NCBI GenBank assembly: GCA_947624065.1
Contig: CANQIO010000016.1
Location: 1-35,542, forward strand
Length of the DNA stretch: 35,542 nucleotides
Reading direction: 5' to 3'
DNA from: an uncultured Oscillospiraceae bacterium
GTDB lineage: Bacteria > Bacillota > Clostridia > Oscillospirales > Oscillospiraceae
The position numbers and the translations under genes were made by a program. The notes beneath the pieces are model-generated. The model did not search any database. It had not been told where the DNA came from and saw only the letters and a program-made list of their open reading frames with translations. Below are positions 961 to 8,874 of this stretch, one piece after another; positions within the stretch are counted from its first letter, which is position 1, and the number at the start of each line of letters is the position of its first letter.

Positions 961-1263
961 ATGAAGATCATACTGGAAGCAGGCGAGATCGATTACGCGG
1001 GCATTCTGATAAAATTCATGCCCATGATCCGGGACAAGTTAAAGGACCTGGATGGAGCGATGCCGAAAATGATAGGCGGCCTCACGGCCTTGCCCGCTCC
1101 GGTGGTGAGAGGCGCCGTCAACGCCCTGCCGCAGGACACGAAGGACCAGATGGTGGCCTATCTCATCAATCACAATGGGGAAAAGATCCTCTCCGCCGCC
1201 CAGGGCTTCGCGGAAAAGCAGGGCATTTCGATCGCCTTCAACAGCATCACGGCGGAAGAGTGA
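961..1263 (+). CDS. Small hypothetical protein, first gene of the accessory operon
   Basis: This 100-residue protein is not one I recognise. It has no signal peptide and no transmembrane segment. The N-terminal half (MKIILEAGEIDYAGILIKFM) is amphipathic, and the middle is rich in Ala, Pro and Val; the C-terminal third looks helical and ends acidic. The ATG at 961 has a GAAGG ribosome binding site 7 bases upstream. The in-frame start at 727 lies within the remnant region and lacks one, so it is rejected. The gene lies 30 bases before the HD-domain gene in the same direction, suggesting co-transcription. Confidence 0.6.
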   Translation: MKIILEAGEIDYAGILIKFMPMIRDKLKDLDGAMPKMIGGLTALPAPVVRGAVNALPQDTKDQMVAYLINHNGEKILSAAQGFAEKQGISIAFNSITAEE

Positions 1264-1293
1264 GCTGACAGCGGGGGAAAGGAGACGCCGGCG

Positions 1294-1920
1294 TTGGAAA
1301 AGACCGTATTCGATCCGGATAAGATGTATACCTATCTGCGGGGCTTTGCCTCCGGCGCGGGGATGGGACAGACCCTGAAGGCCCTGTCCTTCGCGCGGGA
1401 GAAGCACGCGGGGCAAAAGCGCAAAAGCGGCGAGCCGTATATCATCCACCCGTTGACCATGGCCTGCAACGCCGTGAGCATCGGCATCCGGGAGGACAGG
1501 GTCATCGCGGCCATACTGCTGCACGACGTGTGCGAGGACTGCGGCGTGCCGCTGTCCGAGCTGCCTGTGGACGACACAGTCCGCCATGCGGTGGACCTTC
1601 TCACCTTCCAGATCATGGAGGGGGAGACGAAGGAGACCGCCAAGATCCGGTACTACAACATGATCCTTCAGAGCCGGGAGGCCACGCTCACCAAGCTGGT
1701 GGACCGGTGCCACAATGTGTCCAGCATGGCGGGGACCTTCTCGGAGGAAAAGCTGCTGGCCTACATAGACGAAACGAGGCAGTATGTGCTGCCTCTGCTG
1801 CGCAGGGCCAAGACCGCCTATCCCGGGGACGCGGATGTGCTGTTCATCCTCAAGTACCACATCGTGAGCGTAGTGGACTCTCTGGACGCCGCCATGCAGG
1901 TCTACCGGCCCCGGCCGTGA
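1294..1920 (+). CDS. Stand-alone HD-domain (p)ppGpp hydrolase-like protein
   Basis: This 208-residue protein matches the N-terminal HD hydrolase domain of RelA/SpoT enzymes and the small alarmone hydrolases (Mesh1/SAH type), which remove the 3'-diphosphate of (p)ppGpp using Mn2+. Visible hallmarks are [13 protein letters not shown] (34-46), the metal ligand His52 in YIIHP, the HDxxED motif His77-Asp78-Val-Cys-Glu81-Asp82, and LVDRCHN (Asp137, Asn141). There is no synthetase, TGS or ACT domain. Translation is taken from a TTG at 1294, placed 9-10 bases after an AAAGGAG site; no ATG in frame is better placed. It lies 95 bases upstream of the C39 peptidase gene. Family members can act on other nucleotides, so the substrate is not certain. 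Confidence 0.75.
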
Positions 1921-2015
1921 CGGGGTGCGGCGGGCCCTGGCCGGGCGGACCGGCGGAAAAGAGCGCGGAAGGCGGAAAAACAGGGAAAGCGCGCAAAGAG
2001 AACGGAGGTTAGAAA

Positions 2016-2762
2016 ATGCTGGAGGAGACGGTCCCTGAGATTTTCAAACCGTTTGAGATGACCACAGAACTGCCTGGGACGGCCGATCCCGAGCAGGCGC
2101 TGGAAATGGATGAGTTCCAACGCTACGACGAAGCCGCCGAGCAGGGGACGGAGGCATACAGCATCTCACAGGGCGAGTACACCGAATCGGGCCTCTATGT
2201 CCCCGGTCACGTGGAGGAGATCAACCCCGAGGTCGCGGAGTTTGATCCGGAGATGCGCGAGCTGTCCTGTGAGCTGGATACCTGGATCGAGCAGAAGGAA
2301 CCGATGTCCTGCGCCGTCGCGAGCCAGACGATGGCGATCAATCAACTGGAGCATGGCGCCTATTCGGAACAGGAGCTGATCGATCTGGCGCGCGAGAACG
2401 GCTGGTATACCAGCAACGGCACGCTGCCTCGGGACGTGGGCAAGATCGCCGAGTCGATGGGCGCCGAGGTCGAGCGCCGCCGCGGTGTGGAGCCGTCCGA
2501 GCTGACGCTGGCAAACGATCCCACCGTCAAGGTCCTGGCGAATATCGACAGCACGCTGCTGCATTTTCCGGAAAGCGACAAGCGCTGCAAGCCCGACCAC
2601 TGCGTGCAGGTGCTGCGGGTGGAGAATACGACGCAGGGAGAATTCGTGATCCTCAACGACCCCGGACACGAAGGCGGCCGCGGCGCTGTCTACCCGATGG
2701 AGGTCTTTGCCAAGGCCTATCGCGGCGATATAACGACGATCAGAAAGGAGCGGGAAGTATGA
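2016..2762 (+). CDS. C39-like (papain-fold) cysteine peptidase
   Basis: This 248-residue protein has a papain-like peptidase domain of the C39/C39_2 type after an acidic N-terminal region. The expected catalytic residues are visible: Cys99 in EPMSCAVASQTMAIN, His195 in KPDHCVQVL and Asp215 (or Asn214) in VILNDPGHEGG. There is no signal peptide, transmembrane segment or fused ABC transporter, so it is probably cytoplasmic rather than a bacteriocin-processing exporter. The N-terminal region carries PEQALEMDEF (25-34), similar to the EQxEMD repeats of two proteins encoded just downstream. A GGAGG site precedes the ATG. The stop overlaps the next start (ATGA, 2759), indicating coupled translation. 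Substrate unknown; self-processing or cleavage of operon partners is conceivable. Confidence 0.7.
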   Translation: MLEETVPEIFKPFEMTTELPGTADPEQALEMDEFQRYDEAAEQGTEAYSISQGEYTESGLYVPGHVEEINPEVAEFDPEMRELSCELDTWIEQKEPMSCAVASQTMAINQLEHGAYSEQELIDLARENGWYTSNGTLPRDVGKIAESMGAEVERRRGVEPSELTLANDPTVKVLANIDSTLLHFPESDKRCKPDHCVQVLRVENTTQGEFVILNDPGHEGGRGAVYPMEVFAKAYRGDITTIRKEREV

Positions 2763-3190
2763 ACGGCGAAGATCTCATGGAGCAGCTGCTCAACTGCGAT
2801 CAGGCGATGGAGCATATCCCCCTTGAGCTGCAGGCCACGGTCCCTCTGCCCTGGGCGGGCGAGGGGCGCGCGGTGGCATGCTGGTACTACCGGCTGGACA
2901 GCCATAGCGGCGACGTAAAGATCTATTCGCCCGCTCTGCGCGTGATCTGGGATGCGGACAAGATGGCCGTCGTGCACACCCAGACGCTGCAGCCGGTGCT
3001 GCTGGGCTCCGGCCAGGACGTGCTCGGTCCGGCACACCGTCAGCGCGAGGACGCCTATCTGAACGGTCCGCTGACAGACTATTTGACCCGGGGCGCCGCG
3101 GACGGCGTCGCTGACAGCTGGCTTGCCGCCGCGCCGTCGGCCCTTCGGCCCTGGCTTTGGGAAGCGTTAAGGCAGGTGCATTATGTTTGA
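2759..3190 (+). CDS. Hypothetical protein coupled to the C39-like peptidase gene
   Basis: This 143-residue protein is not recognised. It opens with a helical acidic stretch, then VPLPWAGEGRAVACWYYRL and a strand-rich middle (DVKIYSPALRVIWDADKMAVV), suggesting a small alpha/beta domain, and ends with a Trp-rich helix. No signal peptide or membrane segment is visible. It overlaps the peptidase gene by 4 bases and the next gene by 8, so the three are almost certainly translated from one message. This position suggests a partner, inhibitor or adaptor of the peptidase, but the sequence itself does not show a function. Confidence 0.6.
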   Translation: MNGEDLMEQLLNCDQAMEHIPLELQATVPLPWAGEGRAVACWYYRLDSHSGDVKIYSPALRVIWDADKMAVVHTQTLQPVLLGSGQDVLGPAHRQREDAYLNGPLTDYLTRGAADGVADSWLAAAPSALRPWLWEALRQVHYV

Positions 3191-3701
3191 GATATTCAAA
3201 GAAGCGATGGAGGCCCCTCCCGTGCAGCGCGAGGCCGCCGAAACGCCTGAACAGCGGGAGATGGACGCCGCTGTGGAGACGGGCCAGTCCCCCGAACTCA
3301 TCGAGGAGCAGCGGGAGATGGACGCGGTCCCCTTTGGCGGGACAGCGGCCGAGGCCGCCGAACAGGAGGAGATGCTCGGCGCGAAGGAGATCAGCGGCGA
3401 AGAGCGGGCGGCCCAGTTTTTCGAGATGGCGGACCAGTCCCTGCACGAGGCGGACGTCATGTACGAGAACTTCATCCACCGGAACCCAGAGATGCGCGAC
3501 GAGGCGCTCCGCTGCGAGATGCGCGAGGACGGCGTGCGCGCCATGCTGCCGTCGGAACAGGAAGCGCTGCTCTGGTCCAAGGCGGACCTGGAGAAAGCAT
3601 ACGCGATGGTCGACGAGCTGCACGATCAGACCGTCCAGGCCAAGGAGGCCAGGGCGCAGGCGCTCATCGACCGCATCGATAAAGAGCTGGCAGGCTACTG
3701 A
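3183..3701 (+). CDS. Acidic EQxEMD-repeat protein A
   Basis: This 172-residue acidic protein has two parts. The N-terminal 65 residues carry a repeat: EQREMD at 23-28 and again at 42-47 (19 residues apart), then a decayed EQEEM at 60-64. The C-terminal 100 residues are predicted helical and probably coiled (FFEMADQSLHEADVMYENF, then long Glu/Lys/Ala runs). The ATG lies within the end of the preceding gene (8-base overlap). The neighbour at 3741 carries the same repeat with the same spacing, and the C39-like peptidase has a related single copy. No known domain is recognised. It could be an adaptor, a scaffold or a protease target. Confidence 0.65.
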   Translation: MFEIFKEAMEAPPVQREAAETPEQREMDAAVETGQSPELIEEQREMDAVPFGGTAAEAAEQEEMLGAKEISGEERAAQFFEMADQSLHEADVMYENFIHRNPEMRDEALRCEMREDGVRAMLPSEQEALLWSKADLEKAYAMVDELHDQTVQAKEARAQALIDRIDKELAGY

Positions 3702-3740
3702 AGCTATCCATGCAGATCCAATGTGAAAGGAGACCGTACG

Positions 3741-4100
3741 ATGCACAACAGCTATGAGATGACCCCCGCGGAGGCCCCGGAGCGCCTTTCCGGCGAGCTG
3801 AACGCCGCCGCCGCGCTGGAGGCGGCGGAGACCGATCAGACCGCGCTCGAGCAGCAGGAGATGGATGCCGCGGCCCAGGCCGGCGGGACGCCGGAGCTGG
3901 AGGCTGAGCAGCAGGAGATGGACGAGGGCGAGCGGCTCGGCTATTCTTCGGATTATTACAAGCACGAGATGGCGGCGGCCATCAAAAACGACAACAAGAT
4001 CGCCTATGAGAACGCCAAAAGGAATTATGCCGAAAAGGTAGCGAAGGAACAGGCCAAGGAAATGGAAAGAAAGGCTAAGAACGCGGCATCAAAGAAATAA
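3741..4100 (+). CDS. Acidic EQxEMD-repeat protein B
   Basis: This 119-residue protein repeats EQQEMD at 37-42 and 56-61, exactly 19 residues apart, with PEL before the second copy as in the protein encoded just upstream. The C-terminal half changes character: after LGYSSDYYKHEMAAAIKND it becomes a lysine-rich helix (residues 85-119) that could bind nucleic acid, acidic proteins or membrane. The ATG at 3741 is chosen because an AAAGGAG site stands about 9 bases upstream; the in-frame GTG at 3723 overlaps that site. It lies 26 bases before the Hsp70-like gene. The family is unknown to me. Confidence 0.65.
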   Translation: MHNSYEMTPAEAPERLSGELNAAAALEAAETDQTALEQQEMDAAAQAGGTPELEAEQQEMDEGERLGYSSDYYKHEMAAAIKNDNKIAYENAKRNYAEKVAKEQAKEMERKAKNAASKK

Positions 4101-4126
4101 ATAAAAACAAAAGGAGAGAAAAAACA

Positions 4127-6082
4127 ATGGCTAAGAGTTCGAAAAACGCTGGCGCCCTCCGGGGCTCCGTGGACGCCGTCGCGGCAGCGGCTGCCAAGAG
4201 AGGCGTCTCCGTCACCGGGGAAGAGATGGTGTCCCTGGTCAAGACCCATGCGGCCGGCGCCGCCGCATCCATGATAGCGGCGGGCGTCGTCCCTGGTGCT
4301 GGCGGCGCCATCGCCTTTGGCATCGTAAGCGGATTTGTCGTGTCGATGTATTACCGCATCTGCACCAGGCTGAAGATCAGCATCAAGAAAAACGTGCTCA
4401 AATCCGTGGGCTCGGCCCTCATCACCAGCCTGGGCGGCAGCATCGCCGCCGAGCTCATCGCGGGCGCGGTGCTGGGCTTCATACCTGGCATCGGGGCCCT
4501 GGGCGCGACGGCGGTGCTGGGCCTGATGGGCTACAGCATCACCTACTATGCCGGTATCGTCTTCATGAACCTGCTGGTCCGCGTGTTCAAGGCAGGCGGG
4601 TCCCTGGAGGACATGACCGAAGCGGAGATGAAGAGCGTGATGTCGGGGATCACCAAGGAGGTGAAGTTCTCCGACATCAAGGACGAGGCCAAGCAGGGCT
4701 TCAAAGACCGCAAAAAGGACGGTGTCGCTACTGTCATCGAGGACGAGGACGCCCCGGAGGTGGCCGTGTCGGCCAAACCTGAGCGCACCTACTGGCTGCA
4801 TACCGGCATCGATTTTGGCAGCACCAACTCCGTGATGGCCTGGCGGCTGTATAAGTGGACCGAAGCGAATGAGTGGCAGCTGGACGAGCAGCACAACAAG
4901 GAGAACAACATCGTCCGCTGCCCGACCATGCTGGTGTTCAAAAAGGACAACCCCGACCACAGCAACGTACAGGCCGAGGCCGAGGACGTCATCGTCGGCA
5001 AGCGCGCCGAGGATCTGGCCAACGACCAGCTGGAGCCCGCCGTTGCCAGGACCAATTTCAAGCCTGTGTTCTACGACGCGCCCATGGGCAGCGCCGAACA
5101 GAAAGAGGCGACCGACCTCATCGCCCTGTTCATGAAGCATCTGTATCAGCTCTACCAGGGCGACATCCTCGCCAGCCTGCCCAACGAGGTGCAAAAGGAC
5201 ATGTGCGCGACCGTGCATATCTCCACGCCCGTGCGCGCCGACAGCACCCACCGCAGCTGCATGGCTGAACTGGCCAAGCAGGCCGGCTTCGCCCACGACG
5301 GCAAGTACAGCTTCGTCGACACCTCCCGCAACGAGGCCGAGTGCGTCATGCACCTGACCGTCGACGCCAATATCAGCAACATGCAGCGGCTGATGAATAT
5401 CAGCCAGGGCAAGTCCGCGCTCACCATCATGTTCGTGGACGTGGGCGGCAGCACGACGGACATCGAGCTGATCAAGCAGGAGCTGCACAGCGCCGGCAAG
5501 AGCACGCAGGTGCTGGCTATGTGGCCCAGGGGGAACGTGCAGTATATGCTCGGCGGCTGCGAGGTCGACCGTGCGATCTTCGACTACCTCATCGACAAGC
5601 AGTGCCTGATCCCGCGCTACGCCGAGGAGGCCTGGGAGCATGGCACCGGCAAGACCCTGTTCCGCAAGCTCAAGGAGAACAACAACGAGAACCTGCGCGC
5701 CGGCAAACCCATCGCCAAGCTGGGCACGATAAGCTCCGCGTGCGGCGATCCCGACGAGGAGGAGAAGCCCGTCAATAAGTACGCCGACTACAAGATCACC
5801 AGCGAGGTATTTGAAAACGAGATCTGCGGCCGCTACATAAACGACCTGTGCACGGCCCTGCACGAGGTGCTCAAAAACAACGCCGGCGAGGACGAGGTGG
5901 ACGCCGTGTTTGTCACCGGCGCCGGCTCCCGGCTGTACTTTATCCATGACCTGATCCTGGGCCGCTACGGCGATAAACCGCTGCACCTGACCCAGCTGCA
6001 GCAGGACGAATCCCGCCTGTTCGACACCTACCGCGATCCCGCCACCTGCTGTGCGGAGGGCGCGATCTGCGGCGTCATGTAA
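4127..6082 (+). CDS. Membrane-anchored Hsp70/DnaK-like ATPase
   Basis: This 651-residue protein is a fusion. Residues 42-78 and 93-150 are hydrophobic and glycine-rich with two PGxG motifs (VVPGAGGAIAFG, FIPGIGALGATAV), like the membrane-associated C-terminal regions (DUF697/YcjF type) of some bacterial GTPases. From about 220 an actin-fold Hsp70 ATPase domain follows: phosphate-1 loop TGIDFGSTNS (226-235), phosphate-2 loop FVDVGGSTTD (436-445) and adenosine loop FVTGAGSR (595-602). The protein ends just after this domain, so there is no beta-sandwich substrate-binding domain or lid, unlike DnaK. An AAAGGAGAG site precedes the ATG. It probably acts at the inner membrane face as an ATP-driven switch. 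Its partner is likely the HerA-like ATPase encoded next. Confidence 0.75.
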   Translation: MAKSSKNAGALRGSVDAVAAAAAKRGVSVTGEEMVSLVKTHAAGAAASMIAAGVVPGAGGAIAFGIVSGFVVSMYYRICTRLKISIKKNVLKSVGSALITSLGGSIAAELIAGAVLGFIPGIGALGATAVLGLMGYSITYYAGIVFMNLLVRVFKAGGSLEDMTEAEMKSVMSGITKEVKFSDIKDEAKQGFKDRKKDGVATVIEDEDAPEVAVSAKPERTYWLHTGIDFGSTNSVMAWRLYKWTEANEWQLDEQHNKENNIVRCPTMLVFKKDNPDHSNVQAEAEDVIVGKRAEDLANDQLEPAVARTNFKPVFYDAPMGSAEQKEATDLIALFMKHLYQLYQGDILASLPNEVQKDMCATVHISTPVRADSTHRSCMAELAKQAGFAHDGKYSFVDTSRNEAECVMHLTVDANISNMQRLMNISQGKSALTIMFVDVGGSTTDIELIKQELHSAGKSTQVLAMWPRGNVQYMLGGCEVDRAIFDYLIDKQCLIPRYAEEAWEHGTGKTLFRKLKENNNENLRAGKPIAKLGTISSACGDPDEEEKPVNKYADYKITSEVFENEICGRYINDLCTALHEVLKNNAGEDEVDAVFVTGAGSRLYFIHDLILGRYGDKPLHLTQLQQDESRLFDTYRDPATCCAEGAICGVM

Positions 6083-6096
6083 ACGGACCGGTACGG

Positions 6097-6124
6097 GCAG
6101 GCGGCCGGGCCTCCGGCCGCCTGC
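6097..6124 (+). other. Stable stem-loop between the Hsp70-like and HerA-like genes
   Basis: A perfect 12-bp GC-only-type inverted repeat (GCAGGCGGCCGG at 6097-6108, its complement at 6113-6124) encloses a 4-base loop. No T-run follows, so it is not a standard terminator. It lies just upstream of the GGAGG site of the next gene, where it could stabilise the 3' end of the upstream message, cause partial termination or adjust the ratio of the two ATPases. Confidence 0.6.
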
Positions 6125-6148
6125 GGCGCAAATGAAGGAGGGAAGCCA

Positions 6149-8752
6149 ATGGAAAACGGTTTGATGGTGCGTCAGCCGACCAAGCAGGAGCTGACGATGG
6201 CCGAGGAGCAGATCGGCGGCAACTGGATGCCATACCTGATGGATATGCAGCTGAGCCGAAATTATCTCAACAGTATACAGAACCCCGAGCAGTGGGACAT
6301 CGCAGTTTCCGGCCTCAACGCCCCTTTTGGCTGGCTGCAGATCGACCGCCTGCCCATGGACGACGAGGACGGGTACGGCCTTCTGCAGGCGTGGCAGAGC
6401 GTTCTCAGCGCCTGCCACACGCTGGGGCTGAAGGTCGCCTTTGTCCTGCGCCGCGTCAAGGGGCAGACGAAGATCTTTCTCGGCGCCATCAATAGCGATG
6501 GGAACCGCCATGCTGCCTGCAATGTGCTGAAGCAGTGCGCCTCCGTCTATCTGCCCGGCGCGGTCATGCAGGAGCAGAGCGCCGGCTTTGACATGGCCGA
6601 GGCGCTCGTCCCCGCCGGCGAGTTTACGGGCGTGGTCACGGGCATCCCCTCCCTGAAGGGCAGGGACGATCGTCCCCTGGCGCAGACGCTCGACAAGCTC
6701 GCCAGCGGCATCACCTCCAGCGGCAGCCACAAAAACTACGCGCTGGTGGTGATCGCCGATCCGGCGAAGGACGCGGAGATCACCCAGCTGCAGCAAAAGC
6801 TGCTGCGCATCAAGAGCGAGCTGCACACCCTGGCGTCCTACAGCGAATCCTCGAGCGAGAACACAGGGACCAACGCGGGCAGCAGCAAGACCCGCCGCTC
6901 GGGCATGGCGGTCATCCTGAGCATGGTGCAGTCCGCCACGCTCATCTCCGGCATGACGGGGAATCTGCTGGGCTATGCGGGCATGTCGCTGCTGTCGACC
7001 ATGATGGGCGCTTTGGTGGGCGATAAGGGACAGAGCGAGACGCAGACCCACAGCCTCACCAGCAGTCTTACCCAAGAGCACAAGGACTTTACCATCAACT
7101 ACTGCGAGAAGCTCATCGACAAGCACATCGCCCGGATGGAGGGCGGCCGCAGCATGGGCTTCTGGCAGGTCGGCACCTATGTCCTGGGCGAGGAGCGCGA
7201 GACGGTGGACACGGTGCTGGCGCTGCTGCGGTCTGTCTATTCGGGCAGCGAGAGCTACGTCGAGCCGATCCGGGTGGTGAACACCTCGGGCAATGAGCAG
7301 ATCCACGAGATGATCAGCAGCATGCGCTTCGTGCCTCTCCCTGTCCACCCCGACCATCCCGACGGCCACTGGCACGTCCTGGGCCGTATGTACGAGAGCC
7401 TGACCACGCCCCTGACCACCCAGGAGCTGTCTCTGGCCACCAGCCTTCCCCACAGCGACGTGCCGGGCCTGCGCTTTGTGCGCAACGCGGTCCATTTCGC
7501 GGCGAACCCGGCTGTCGTGCGCCAGAAGGAGAACGCCATCGTGCTGGGGCAGCTGATGGATATGGGCGCCCAGCAGGTATCGGAGTACGCGATGGATGTG
7601 AACGCCCTTGTGCGCCACACGCTGGTCGCCGGAAGCACGGGCTCGGGCAAGTCCACCACCTGCAAGCGCATCCTGCGGGAAGTGCTCGACAAGAACATCC
7701 CGGTCATGATCATAGAGCCCGCCAAGGACGACTATGTCACCTGGGCGCTCGAGATGAACAAGACTCTGCCCAAGCAGATGCGGTTCACGATCTATATGCC
7801 CGGCGCGGACGAGTTTGACGGCGTGCCCCTGCCCCAGTTCCATCTCAACCCCTTCGAGCCGGCTGCCTATCGCAACAGCAAAGTGCGCATCCAGCAGCAC
7901 AGCGAGCATTTTGCCACCCTGCTGAACGCGTGCCTGCCGTCGGAGGACATCATCCCCATCCTGATCGACGAGTCGGTGCAGCACTGCATCCGGGTCAAGA
8001 CGGCCAACGCGGGCATCGACATCGACCAGCGGCTCAACGAGCAGATGAAGCAGTACCCGACGATGGTATCCCTGGGCTGCGCGGGCAACGCGATCATCAA
8101 ACGCAAGACCTATGCCCAGCAGACGAAGGACAGCTTTGAGGAGATTCTGCGCACCCGCTTCGAGTATTTGAAGCGCGGCACCCGCGGCAGCATCCTCAAT
8201 ACGCCCCGCTCCGTGAACTTCGACGAGCTGTTCTCCCGCCCGACGGTGATCAACCTGAGCTGCCTGGCCGGCAGCAAGGACAAGGCGCTCGTCATGTCGC
8301 TGCTACTCCTGGCGCTGTATGAGTACCGCCAGTCCCGCTATGCCAACGACCCGGCCTACCGCGCCGAGGCGAAGAAGAACCGCCTCATGCACCTGATGCT
8401 CATCGAGGAGGCGCACAACGTGCTCACCCGTCCCACCCCGACGGCGAATGGCGGCAGCCCCGAGATGGCGGCGGCGGACCTGTTCACCAACATCCTCTCG
8501 GAGATCCGCAGCTACGGCCAGGGCATGATGATCGTGGACCAGGTGCCCACACGTCTGATCGAGGACGCCGTCAAGAACACCAACTACAAGATCACCCACC
8601 GTCTCGCCGCGCCGGACGACATTGAAGTGATGGCCCGCAGCATGGGCCTCAACGATGATCAGAAGGAGATGGTCGCGTCCCTGGAGATCGGCCACGCCAT
8701 CGTCTGCGGCGACCAGGACGACGGCCCGAGCTGGGTGAAGATGAAGCGCTGA
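6149..8752 (+). CDS. HerA/VirB4-like hexameric ATPase
   Basis: This 867-residue protein has a C-terminal FtsK/HerA-superfamily ATPase (DUF87 type): Walker A AGSTGSGKST with Lys501, then MIIEPAKDDY, Walker B LMLIEEAHN (Glu753-Glu754), and the region IVDQVPTRLIEDAVKNTNYK typical of HerA and VirB4 proteins. The N-terminal 480 residues are unusual. They include a hydrophobic, glycine/methionine-rich segment (about 251-294) that could insert in or lie on the membrane. Such motors pump DNA or remodel protein-DNA complexes, often as partners of nucleases or secretion systems; here no nuclease is encoded nearby. Its GGAGG site follows the 6097-6124 hairpin. It is the last gene before the strong terminator at 8834. 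Confidence 0.8.
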   Translation: MENGLMVRQPTKQELTMAEEQIGGNWMPYLMDMQLSRNYLNSIQNPEQWDIAVSGLNAPFGWLQIDRLPMDDEDGYGLLQAWQSVLSACHTLGLKVAFVLRRVKGQTKIFLGAINSDGNRHAACNVLKQCASVYLPGAVMQEQSAGFDMAEALVPAGEFTGVVTGIPSLKGRDDRPLAQTLDKLASGITSSGSHKNYALVVIADPAKDAEITQLQQKLLRIKSELHTLASYSESSSENTGTNAGSSKTRRSGMAVILSMVQSATLISGMTGNLLGYAGMSLLSTMMGALVGDKGQSETQTHSLTSSLTQEHKDFTINYCEKLIDKHIARMEGGRSMGFWQVGTYVLGEERETVDTVLALLRSVYSGSESYVEPIRVVNTSGNEQIHEMISSMRFVPLPVHPDHPDGHWHVLGRMYESLTTPLTTQELSLATSLPHSDVPGLRFVRNAVHFAANPAVVRQKENAIVLGQLMDMGAQQVSEYAMDVNALVRHTLVAGSTGSGKSTTCKRILREVLDKNIPVMIIEPAKDDYVTWALEMNKTLPKQMRFTIYMPGADEFDGVPLPQFHLNPFEPAAYRNSKVRIQQHSEHFATLLNACLPSEDIIPILIDESVQHCIRVKTANAGIDIDQRLNEQMKQYPTMVSLGCAGNAIIKRKTYAQQTKDSFEEILRTRFEYLKRGTRGSILNTPRSVNFDELFSRPTVINLSCLAGSKDKALVMSLLLLALYEYRQSRYANDPAYRAEAKKNRLMHLMLIEEAHNVLTRPTPTANGGSPEMAAADLFTNILSEIRSYGQGMMIVDQVPTRLIEDAVKNTNYKITHRLAAPDDIEVMARSMGLNDDQKEMVASLEIGHAIVCGDQDDGPSWVKMKR

Positions 8753-8833
8753 AGCGCTTCCCTAAACGCGCACACGCCAGTCGATGAAAAAGCGCTGACC
8801 ATGCTGTGCTTTATCTGAAAGCTGGAGCCGGAA

Positions 8834-8874
8834 AGAGATCGGAACGCGATAAGCGTTCCGATCTCTGTTTTTTC
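8834..8874 (+). terminator. Strong rho-independent terminator of the accessory operon
   Basis: A perfect 14-bp stem (8834-8847 pairing with 8853-8866) with a 5-base GATAA loop is followed by GTTTTTTCTTT. It closes the operon that ends with the HerA-like gene. Confidence 0.95.

What the first reader, a model, noticed from the sequence alone, without database searches (positions are those of the whole stretch)
961..8874. Undescribed-looking operon: C39-like peptidase, repeat proteins, membrane Hsp70-like ATPase and HerA-like ATPase
Seen: eight co-directional genes, some overlapping, ending in one strong terminator, next to mobile-element debris. Known: HerA-like ATPases partner with nucleases or SIR2 in defence, Hsp70 nucleotide-binding domains act as ATP switches, and C39/papain peptidases process proteins. 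I recognise no named system combining these with small EQxEMD-repeat proteins. Inference: an ATP-powered membrane complex that activates or feeds a protease, perhaps in phage or stress response or in export of the small proteins.
Basis: partly seen in the sequence, partly recalled or inferred. Interest (0 to 1): 0.88.

Follow-up and report, generated by a model that had tools for sequence, protein, structure and literature searches.

The report
Gut bacteria's likely toxin export locus
This conserved gene set in gut Clostridia pairs a secretion-type motor ATPase and an Hsp70-like switch with an exchangeable protein-cutting enzyme and its own partner protein, and it looks like an undescribed machine for exporting antibacterial toxins.

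Summary
The operon is real and conserved. Its core is window 2016-8752 (C39-like peptidase, small partner, two repeat/hairpin proteins, Hsp70-like ATPase, 'HerA-like' ATPase), closed by a strong terminator. Of 39 loci, mostly from named Clostridia, the 25 with more than 5 kb on both sides all carry the Hsp70 gene and a peptidase directly followed by a partner gene. The first two genes (961-1920) are accessory.

Best reading: a toxin/immunity cassette plus a dedicated export machine, not phage defence. Export itself is inferred, not shown. The ATPase type was noted once, in CoCoNuT operons (PMC11090510). Ten searches of the held papers found no description of this locus.

The parts
961..1263 (+). 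g1, 100 aa, no Pfam match; accessory, not core
   Evidence: its cluster C12 is found in 5 of 39 loci, window included
1294..1920 (+). g2, SpoT/RelA-type HD protein; accessory gene
   Evidence: HD_4 7.6e-10, spoT_relA 5.3e-22 but below its cut-off; 7 of 35 genus genomes
2016..2762 (+). g3, C39-like papain-fold peptidase with acidic N-terminus; likely toxin/effector
   Evidence: Cys99/His195/Asn214-Asp215 kept; in 27 of 29 locus-bearing genomes, strong matches only inside the locus
2759..3190 (+). g4, partner directly after the peptidase; likely immunity protein (or inhibitor/chaperone)
   Evidence: 33-member alignment; model pLDDT 92.6; no clear PDB relative
3183..3701 (+). g5, EQxEMD-repeat protein, 172 aa
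   Evidence: three motifs at residues 23, 42, 60; homologues in L050, L051, L054
3741..4100 (+). g6, EQxEMD repeats plus C-terminal helical-hairpin module; possible adaptor or secreted helper
   Evidence: two motifs; hairpin alignment A4; helical hairpin is my reading of the sequence, not modelled
4127..6082 (+). g7, Hsp70-like nucleotide-binding domain (residues ~219-651), no substrate-binding domain in this copy, hydrophobic N-terminal region (~40-175)
   Evidence: Pfam HSP70; family profile to DnaK 5.2e-53; hydrophobic segments 46-64 and 98-116
6149..8752 (+). g8, VirB4-like N-terminal domain fused to a HerA-type ATPase
6845..7078 (+). insert in g8 (residues 233-310), low model confidence, glycine-rich and hydrophobic; possible membrane hairpin
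   Evidence: pLDDT under 50; glycine-zipper 2TM 9.4e-4 in 1 of 26 members; no segment called in the window's copy
7631..7654 (+). Walker A motif GSTGSGKS of g8
   Evidence: sequence
8834..8866 (+). intrinsic terminator

Best explanation
The operon is a toxin/immunity cassette with its own export machine. The peptidase g3 is the toxin cargo and g4 is the immunity protein that keeps it in check in the producer. g8 forms a membrane-associated ring motor (VirB4-like base plus HerA-type ATPase) that pushes cargo out of the cell. The Hsp70-like g7, probably anchored in the membrane in this subtype, gates or loads the motor. The small repeat/hairpin proteins g5 and g6 act as adaptors or co-exported helpers. 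Shown: gene content, conservation, exchange of cargo types together with their partner, the VirB4-like fold (by model), and toxin/immunity neighbours of related ATPases. Inferred: ring formation, membrane position, secretion, direction of transport, toxicity, immunity, and the roles of the Hsp70 and hairpin proteins.
Against: No experiment shows export or toxicity. No channel component is identified; the membrane insert of g8 is not called by hydropathy in the window's own copy, and in 13 of 39 members overall. The g8 model is only moderate (mean pLDDT 67, 126 of 466 residues under 50) and Foldseek TM-scores are low (0.30-0.38 by query). The three C39 members scanned match only C39 peptidase families, no toxin family, and g4 matches no immunity family. 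Locus-bearing genomes carry one C39 locus, not an array of effectors. The toxins of distant relatives do not share the acidic N-terminus of the C39 family (median net charge -1 against -11; not different from other flanking genes, p 0.15), and motif sharing between peptidase and repeat protein of one locus is not convincing (permutation p 0.03, uncorrected for relatedness). Repeat/hairpin genes were recognised in only 19 of 39 loci. The dead C39 copies are full length, which may mean a structural role.
Confidence: 0.6

Rival explanations
1. An intracellular defence or suicide system: the ATPase and Hsp70 sense invasion or stress and release the peptidase from its bound inhibitor g4, and the cell stops growing.
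For: The motor domain matches PADLOC HerA models (5.8e-19); patchy distribution (9 of 60 relatives, own genome included); Hsp70-like proteins occur in described conflict systems (PMC11090510, passages).
Against: VirB4-like N-terminal fold; toxins of the interbacterial type, some with SUKH immunity genes, beside related ATPases; in 85 genes sampled further out no defence model matched more than 3, those being HTH-type models, with single matches to PglZ, mad6 and PD-T4-6 among the rest (25 of 66 matched families printed).
Confidence: 0.22
2. The C39 peptidase is a processing enzyme that trims the small repeat proteins, which are the exported product.
For: C39 domains trim leader peptides in bacteriocin exporters (recalled); repeat proteins neighbour the peptidase in the window.
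Against: The corresponding slot is filled in relatives by HExxH proteins, deamidases and DNases, which cannot share one processing role; a C39 itself carries the hairpin module in L062 (iE 1.8e-4 with that protein left out of the model); catalytically dead C39 copies exist.
Confidence: 0.1
3. A fragment of a conjugation or DNA-transfer system.
For: VirB4-like domain.
Against: TrbL/VirB6 found in only 3 of 24 locus-bearing genomes; two of these matches are on other contigs than the locus, the third (G446) on a contig that I could not tie to the locus; no conjugation gene recognised among the conserved clusters; cargo-type toxins beside relatives.
Confidence: 0.05

Closest known systems
EccE3-HerA / VirB4-like ATPase of extended Type III-A CoCoNuT operons (PMC11090510, section 10 read)
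   Same: FtsK/HerA-superfamily ATPase with an EccE3-like domain fused to a VirB4-like motor, a variable insertion, and a small helical protein in the operon; authors suggest secretion or conjugation
   Different: There it lies mostly between VWA genes in a McrBC-type restriction operon; here it is a stand-alone locus with Hsp70 and peptidase/partner, and relatives carry toxin/immunity pairs
Type VII (ESX/Ess) secretion with polymorphic toxins
   Same: FtsK/HerA-superfamily motor, small helical proteins, toxin/immunity cargo in Gram-positives; ESX chains are the second-best fold match
   Different: WXG100 matches absent from 17 of 24 locus-bearing genomes and, in the other 7, on other contigs than the locus; an Hsp70-like protein is constant here
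Type IV secretion ATPase VirB4/TrwK
   Different: No other T4SS part recognised at the locus; TrbL/VirB6 in 3 of 24 genomes
Polymorphic toxin systems (PMC3482391, passages read)
   Same: Exchangeable toxin domains followed by immunity genes, SUKH included
   Different: The passages seen list T7SS, T6SS, PVC and other routes, not a VirB4-HerA/Hsp70 machine; the term Hsp70 does not occur in the held part of the text
HerA-nuclease / HerA-SIR2 defence
   Same: HerA-type motor domain
   Different: No SIR2/nuclease partner matched in the operon; VirB4-like N-terminal fold

Membership tests
Type IV secretion system | VirB4-type ATPase | tested here: met
Type IV secretion system | VirB6/TrbL inner-membrane protein | tested here: not met
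   PF04610 in 3 of 24 genomes, 2 above cut-off; the own genome is only 75% complete
Type IV secretion system | VirB8, VirD4 coupling protein, relaxase | not tested
   no family search run for these
Type VII secretion system | WXG100 substrates | tested here: not met
   PF06013: 7 of 24 genomes (5 above cut-off), each on another contig than the locus
Type VII secretion system | EccE-like domain | tested here: inconclusive
HerA defence systems | SIR2 or nuclease partner gene | tested here: not met
   no such match in the eight genes
HerA defence systems | HAS-barrel N-terminal domain (recalled) | tested here: inconclusive
   VirB4 fold found instead; no HerA chain among the rows printed
Polymorphic toxin/immunity system | toxin gene directly followed by immunity gene | tested here: inconclusive
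   window: peptidase and partner overlap by 4 bp, functions unknown; relatives: 17 of 34 distant loci with a Pfam toxin, five of them with a tested SUKH gene behind
Polymorphic toxin/immunity system | exchangeable toxin domains on a constant delivery apparatus | tested here: met
   C39, HExxH, papain deamidase and several nuclease types beside one ATPase family; that the apparatus delivers is not shown
C39 bacteriocin exporter (PCAT) | C39 peptidase fused to an ABC transporter | tested here: not met
   g3 is a stand-alone 248 aa protein
CoCoNuT | McrB GTPase and McrC | tested here: not met
   no such match among nine window proteins; no such cluster recognised in 39 loci, most clusters not searched by Pfam
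Hsp70 chaperone | nucleotide-binding plus substrate-binding domain | tested here: not met
   window copy only: Pfam match 431-628 of 651 covers NBD positions 185-362 of 599; other family members are longer and their tails were not tested

The most novel reading that the evidence does not exclude
A previously undescribed class of protein secretion system in Clostridia: one VirB4-HerA fusion ATPase, switched by an Hsp70-like or dynamin-like NTPase, exports exchangeable toxins (peptidases, deamidases, nucleases), each with its own immunity protein, with short helical-hairpin proteins as adaptors.
Probability: 0.45. Interest if true: 0.92.

Novelty: new variant of a known kind. Interest (0 to 1): 0.8.

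Why it matters
Gut Clostridia are abundant, yet few antagonism systems of theirs are understood (general knowledge). If this locus exports toxins, it adds a compact machine, driven by a VirB4-related motor and an Hsp70 or dynamin switch, to the known ways Gram-positive bacteria attack neighbours. It would also suggest a function for an ATPase type that I found described only as an unexplained part of CoCoNuT operons, and perhaps for the related NCBI 'serine-rich protein' family NF033849 (only the window protein was scanned against it, and scored below its cut-off). Carriers named as isolates exist (Blautia schinkii DSM 10518, Diplocloster strains), so it can be tested directly.

Tried and rejected
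Shared short motif as a secretion tag: g3 carries EQALEMD, like the repeats, but gives no match to the strict motif, and same-locus similarity between peptidase and repeat-protein N-termini over 20 loci is only marginal (p 0.03 without correction for relatedness). A tag-like N-terminus shared by two DNase toxins (54% identity) was sought in 99 genomes: 2 matched, the query's own and one weak match (E 0.0038) that on inspection lies among housekeeping genes.

Limits: genes were called with my own simple caller, which missed g4-g6 in the window, so the window's partner was counted by hand. The 39 loci were found through the ATPase, include near-duplicates (L056/L057/L075, L058/L067, L074/L085), and L146 is the L069 contig again. 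L057_14 and L068_06 were left out of alignment A2, L057_15 and L061_06 out of A3; L076_04 was added to A3 by eye. Cargo genes for Pfam were hand-picked: 22 tested in 21 of 34 distant loci, 17 above cut-off, 5 not (L148_10, L145_11, L147_03, L152_09, L161_09). Hsp70 was not found in 4 of 39 loci, all cut short by contig ends. C22 has an HExxH motif in 4 of 4 members, but Pfam gave nothing significant for the one scanned.

Papers: ten searches; most subscription journals and bioRxiv preprints are not held.
Full report
What is there. The window carries eight co-directional genes (961-8752, + strand) closed by a strong terminator at 8834-8866. Domain searches give: g2 RelA/SpoT-type HD, g3 C39 below cut-off, g7 Hsp70 (7.6e-5), g8 DUF87/HerA (2.2e-11); g1, g4 and g5 have no match and g6 no significant one. 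g5 carries three and g6 two EQxEM motifs.

Conservation. In 60 related genomes (own included) the Hsp70-like nucleotide-binding domain was found nine times in seven genomes, each time beside a HerA-like gene; an eighth genome (G043) matched only the hydrophobic N-terminal region. A profile of the HerA-like protein (A1) brought 38 named loci, mostly Clostridia, among them Blautia schinkii, Lachnoclostridium, [Clostridium] citroniae and Diplocloster; six of the 38 are the relatives already found. With the window these are 39 loci. The 25 with more than 5 kb on both sides all carry the Hsp70 gene and a peptidase, and in all of them the peptidase is followed directly by a partner gene (the window's partner counted by hand). 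Over all 39: Hsp70 35, peptidase 36, C4 (predicted N-terminal membrane segment in 18 of 25 members) 25, LytTR-cluster regulator 20, recognised repeat/hairpin gene 19. The four loci without Hsp70 are cut short by contig ends. The genes g1-g2 are not part of this set.

The peptidase. Of 32 aligned members, 30 keep Cys99, His195 and Asp215, and all keep Asn214. In 29 locus-bearing genomes the family occurs in 27; all 29 strong matches lie in the loci (these had built the profile) and only two weak matches (1.2e-4, 7.2e-4) lie elsewhere. The two genomes without it (L069, L073) have an HExxH protein in its place. So the peptidase belongs to this locus. The two members that lost the catalytic residues (L068_10, L080_04) each sit in a locus with a second copy that looks intact, and L061 has an intact-looking copy plus a second partner gene with at most a weak remnant of a peptidase at its start (profile E 0.0037).

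The partner. g4 belongs to a divergent family (33 aligned members). Its model is confident (pLDDT 92.6) but no solved structure stands out. Each cargo type has its own partner type: C39 with the g4 family, HExxH C22 with C23, papain-fold deamidase with a 74-82 aa protein (resemblance of the latter by eye). This pairing is what toxin/immunity cassettes show; an inhibitor or chaperone role is also possible.

Repeat and hairpin proteins. g6 ends in a ~40-residue module, read as a helical hairpin, that recurs in type B repeat proteins. With the fused proteins left out of the model, it is still found twice in L055_09 (1.4e-15, 1.3e-12), once at the end of the L062 peptidase (1.8e-4) and of L071_10 (3.4e-4), and weakly in the L055 partner (0.017), in a search of 674 proteins. 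The module therefore belongs with the cargo pair. Peptidases and repeat proteins both have acidic N-termini (median net charge -11 over 50 residues; other flanking genes 0), but the distant toxins do not (-1). A locus-specific shared tag was not established.

Relatives with recognised cargo. Thirty-four more distant loci (35 ATPase genes; L146 repeats the L069 contig) came from relatives, order and class scans. Many have the order dynamin-like GTPase (cluster D1 in 10 loci, D11 in 4; one member of each checked as Dynamin_N) or, less often, Hsp70, then the ATPase, then a cargo gene, then a small gene. Twenty-two hand-picked neighbour genes in 21 loci were scanned; 17, in 17 loci, pass Pfam cut-offs: Colicin-DNase/WHH in ten (L132, L133, L135, L137, L138, L139, L140, L145, L155, L156), LHH in L134 and L159, GH-E in L157, Endonuclea_NS_2 in L136 and L150, Gln_amidase in L143 and L160. 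Fifteen of these lie directly after the ATPase gene; in L145 one gene lies between, and in L135 the toxin lies upstream with one gene between. Six hand-picked partner genes all match SUKH families: five directly behind such a toxin (L133, L134, L139, L155, L159) and one behind an unidentified gene (L154). One distant locus, L031, has ATPase, Hsp70 (2e-5) and C39 (2e-5) together, which ties the two groups.

What it is not. WXG100 matches are absent from 17 of 24 locus-bearing genomes and lie on other contigs than the locus in the other 7. TrbL/VirB6 is found in 3 of 24, two on other contigs and one on a contig not tied to the locus. So it is neither a type VII nor a type IV system in the usual sense. 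Among 85 genes sampled further from the core, the printed Pfam matches are mostly housekeeping (25 of 117 families shown); PADLOC matches are HTH-type models in 2-3 members and single matches such as PglZ and mad6 (25 of 66 shown).

Mechanism proposed. A membrane-associated ring of g8 drives peptidase cargo out; the Hsp70-like protein gates it; g4 protects the producer; hairpin proteins help loading. Shown are linkage, modelled fold, catalytic residues, pairing and the cargo of relatives. Ring formation, export, toxicity and immunity are inferred.

Known relatives. PMC11090510 (section 10 read; other passages) describes an 'EccE3-HerA' ATPase with VirB4-like motor and a small helical protein in extended Type III-A CoCoNuT operons and suggests secretion or conjugation. 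The passages seen of PMC3482391 and PMC7159879 describe polymorphic toxins and NTPase conflict systems but not this set. Ten searches found no paper on the locus.

Noticed in passing
window 1294-1920; G003, G033, G007: A SpoT-type HD gene 93-94% identical between genomes whose neighbouring ATPases are only about 35-50% identical to the window's lies within a few kb of the locus in all four genus genomes that have both, on either side of it; it may mark a shared insertion site or an exchanged accessory gene.
   Followed up: partly
L056, L057, L060, L061, L064, L065, L067, L069, L070, L074, L081, L085: Two to four Hsp70-like paralogues in one locus (12 of 39 loci); in L065 two share a near-identical nucleotide-binding domain but have different C-terminal regions, as if the tail were being exchanged (by eye).
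   Followed up: no
L051, L054, L055, L060, L067, L072, L079, L082 (C8); L063, L065 (NADAR-like); L056, L057 (macro-like): ADP-ribose-related genes seem to recur in the flanks: an ADP-ribosylglycohydrolase-like cluster (C8, 8 loci), NADAR-like and macro-domain-like genes (names by eye, apart from single NADAR and Macro matches).
   Followed up: no
L056, L057, L059, L071: Dynamin-like GTPases (cluster C9, named by eye) lie near Hsp70-type loci too, linking the Hsp70 and dynamin variants.
   Followed up: no
L068 13231-14010, L080 2779-3432: Full-length C39 paralogues that lost Cys, His and Asp together, each in a locus with a second copy that looks intact; possible pseudo-enzymes with a structural role.
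   Followed up: partly
L034 8137-9282 (G043): A GTPase-like protein whose C-terminal membrane region resembles the hydrophobic N-terminal region of the window's Hsp70-like protein (2.7e-4).
   Followed up: no
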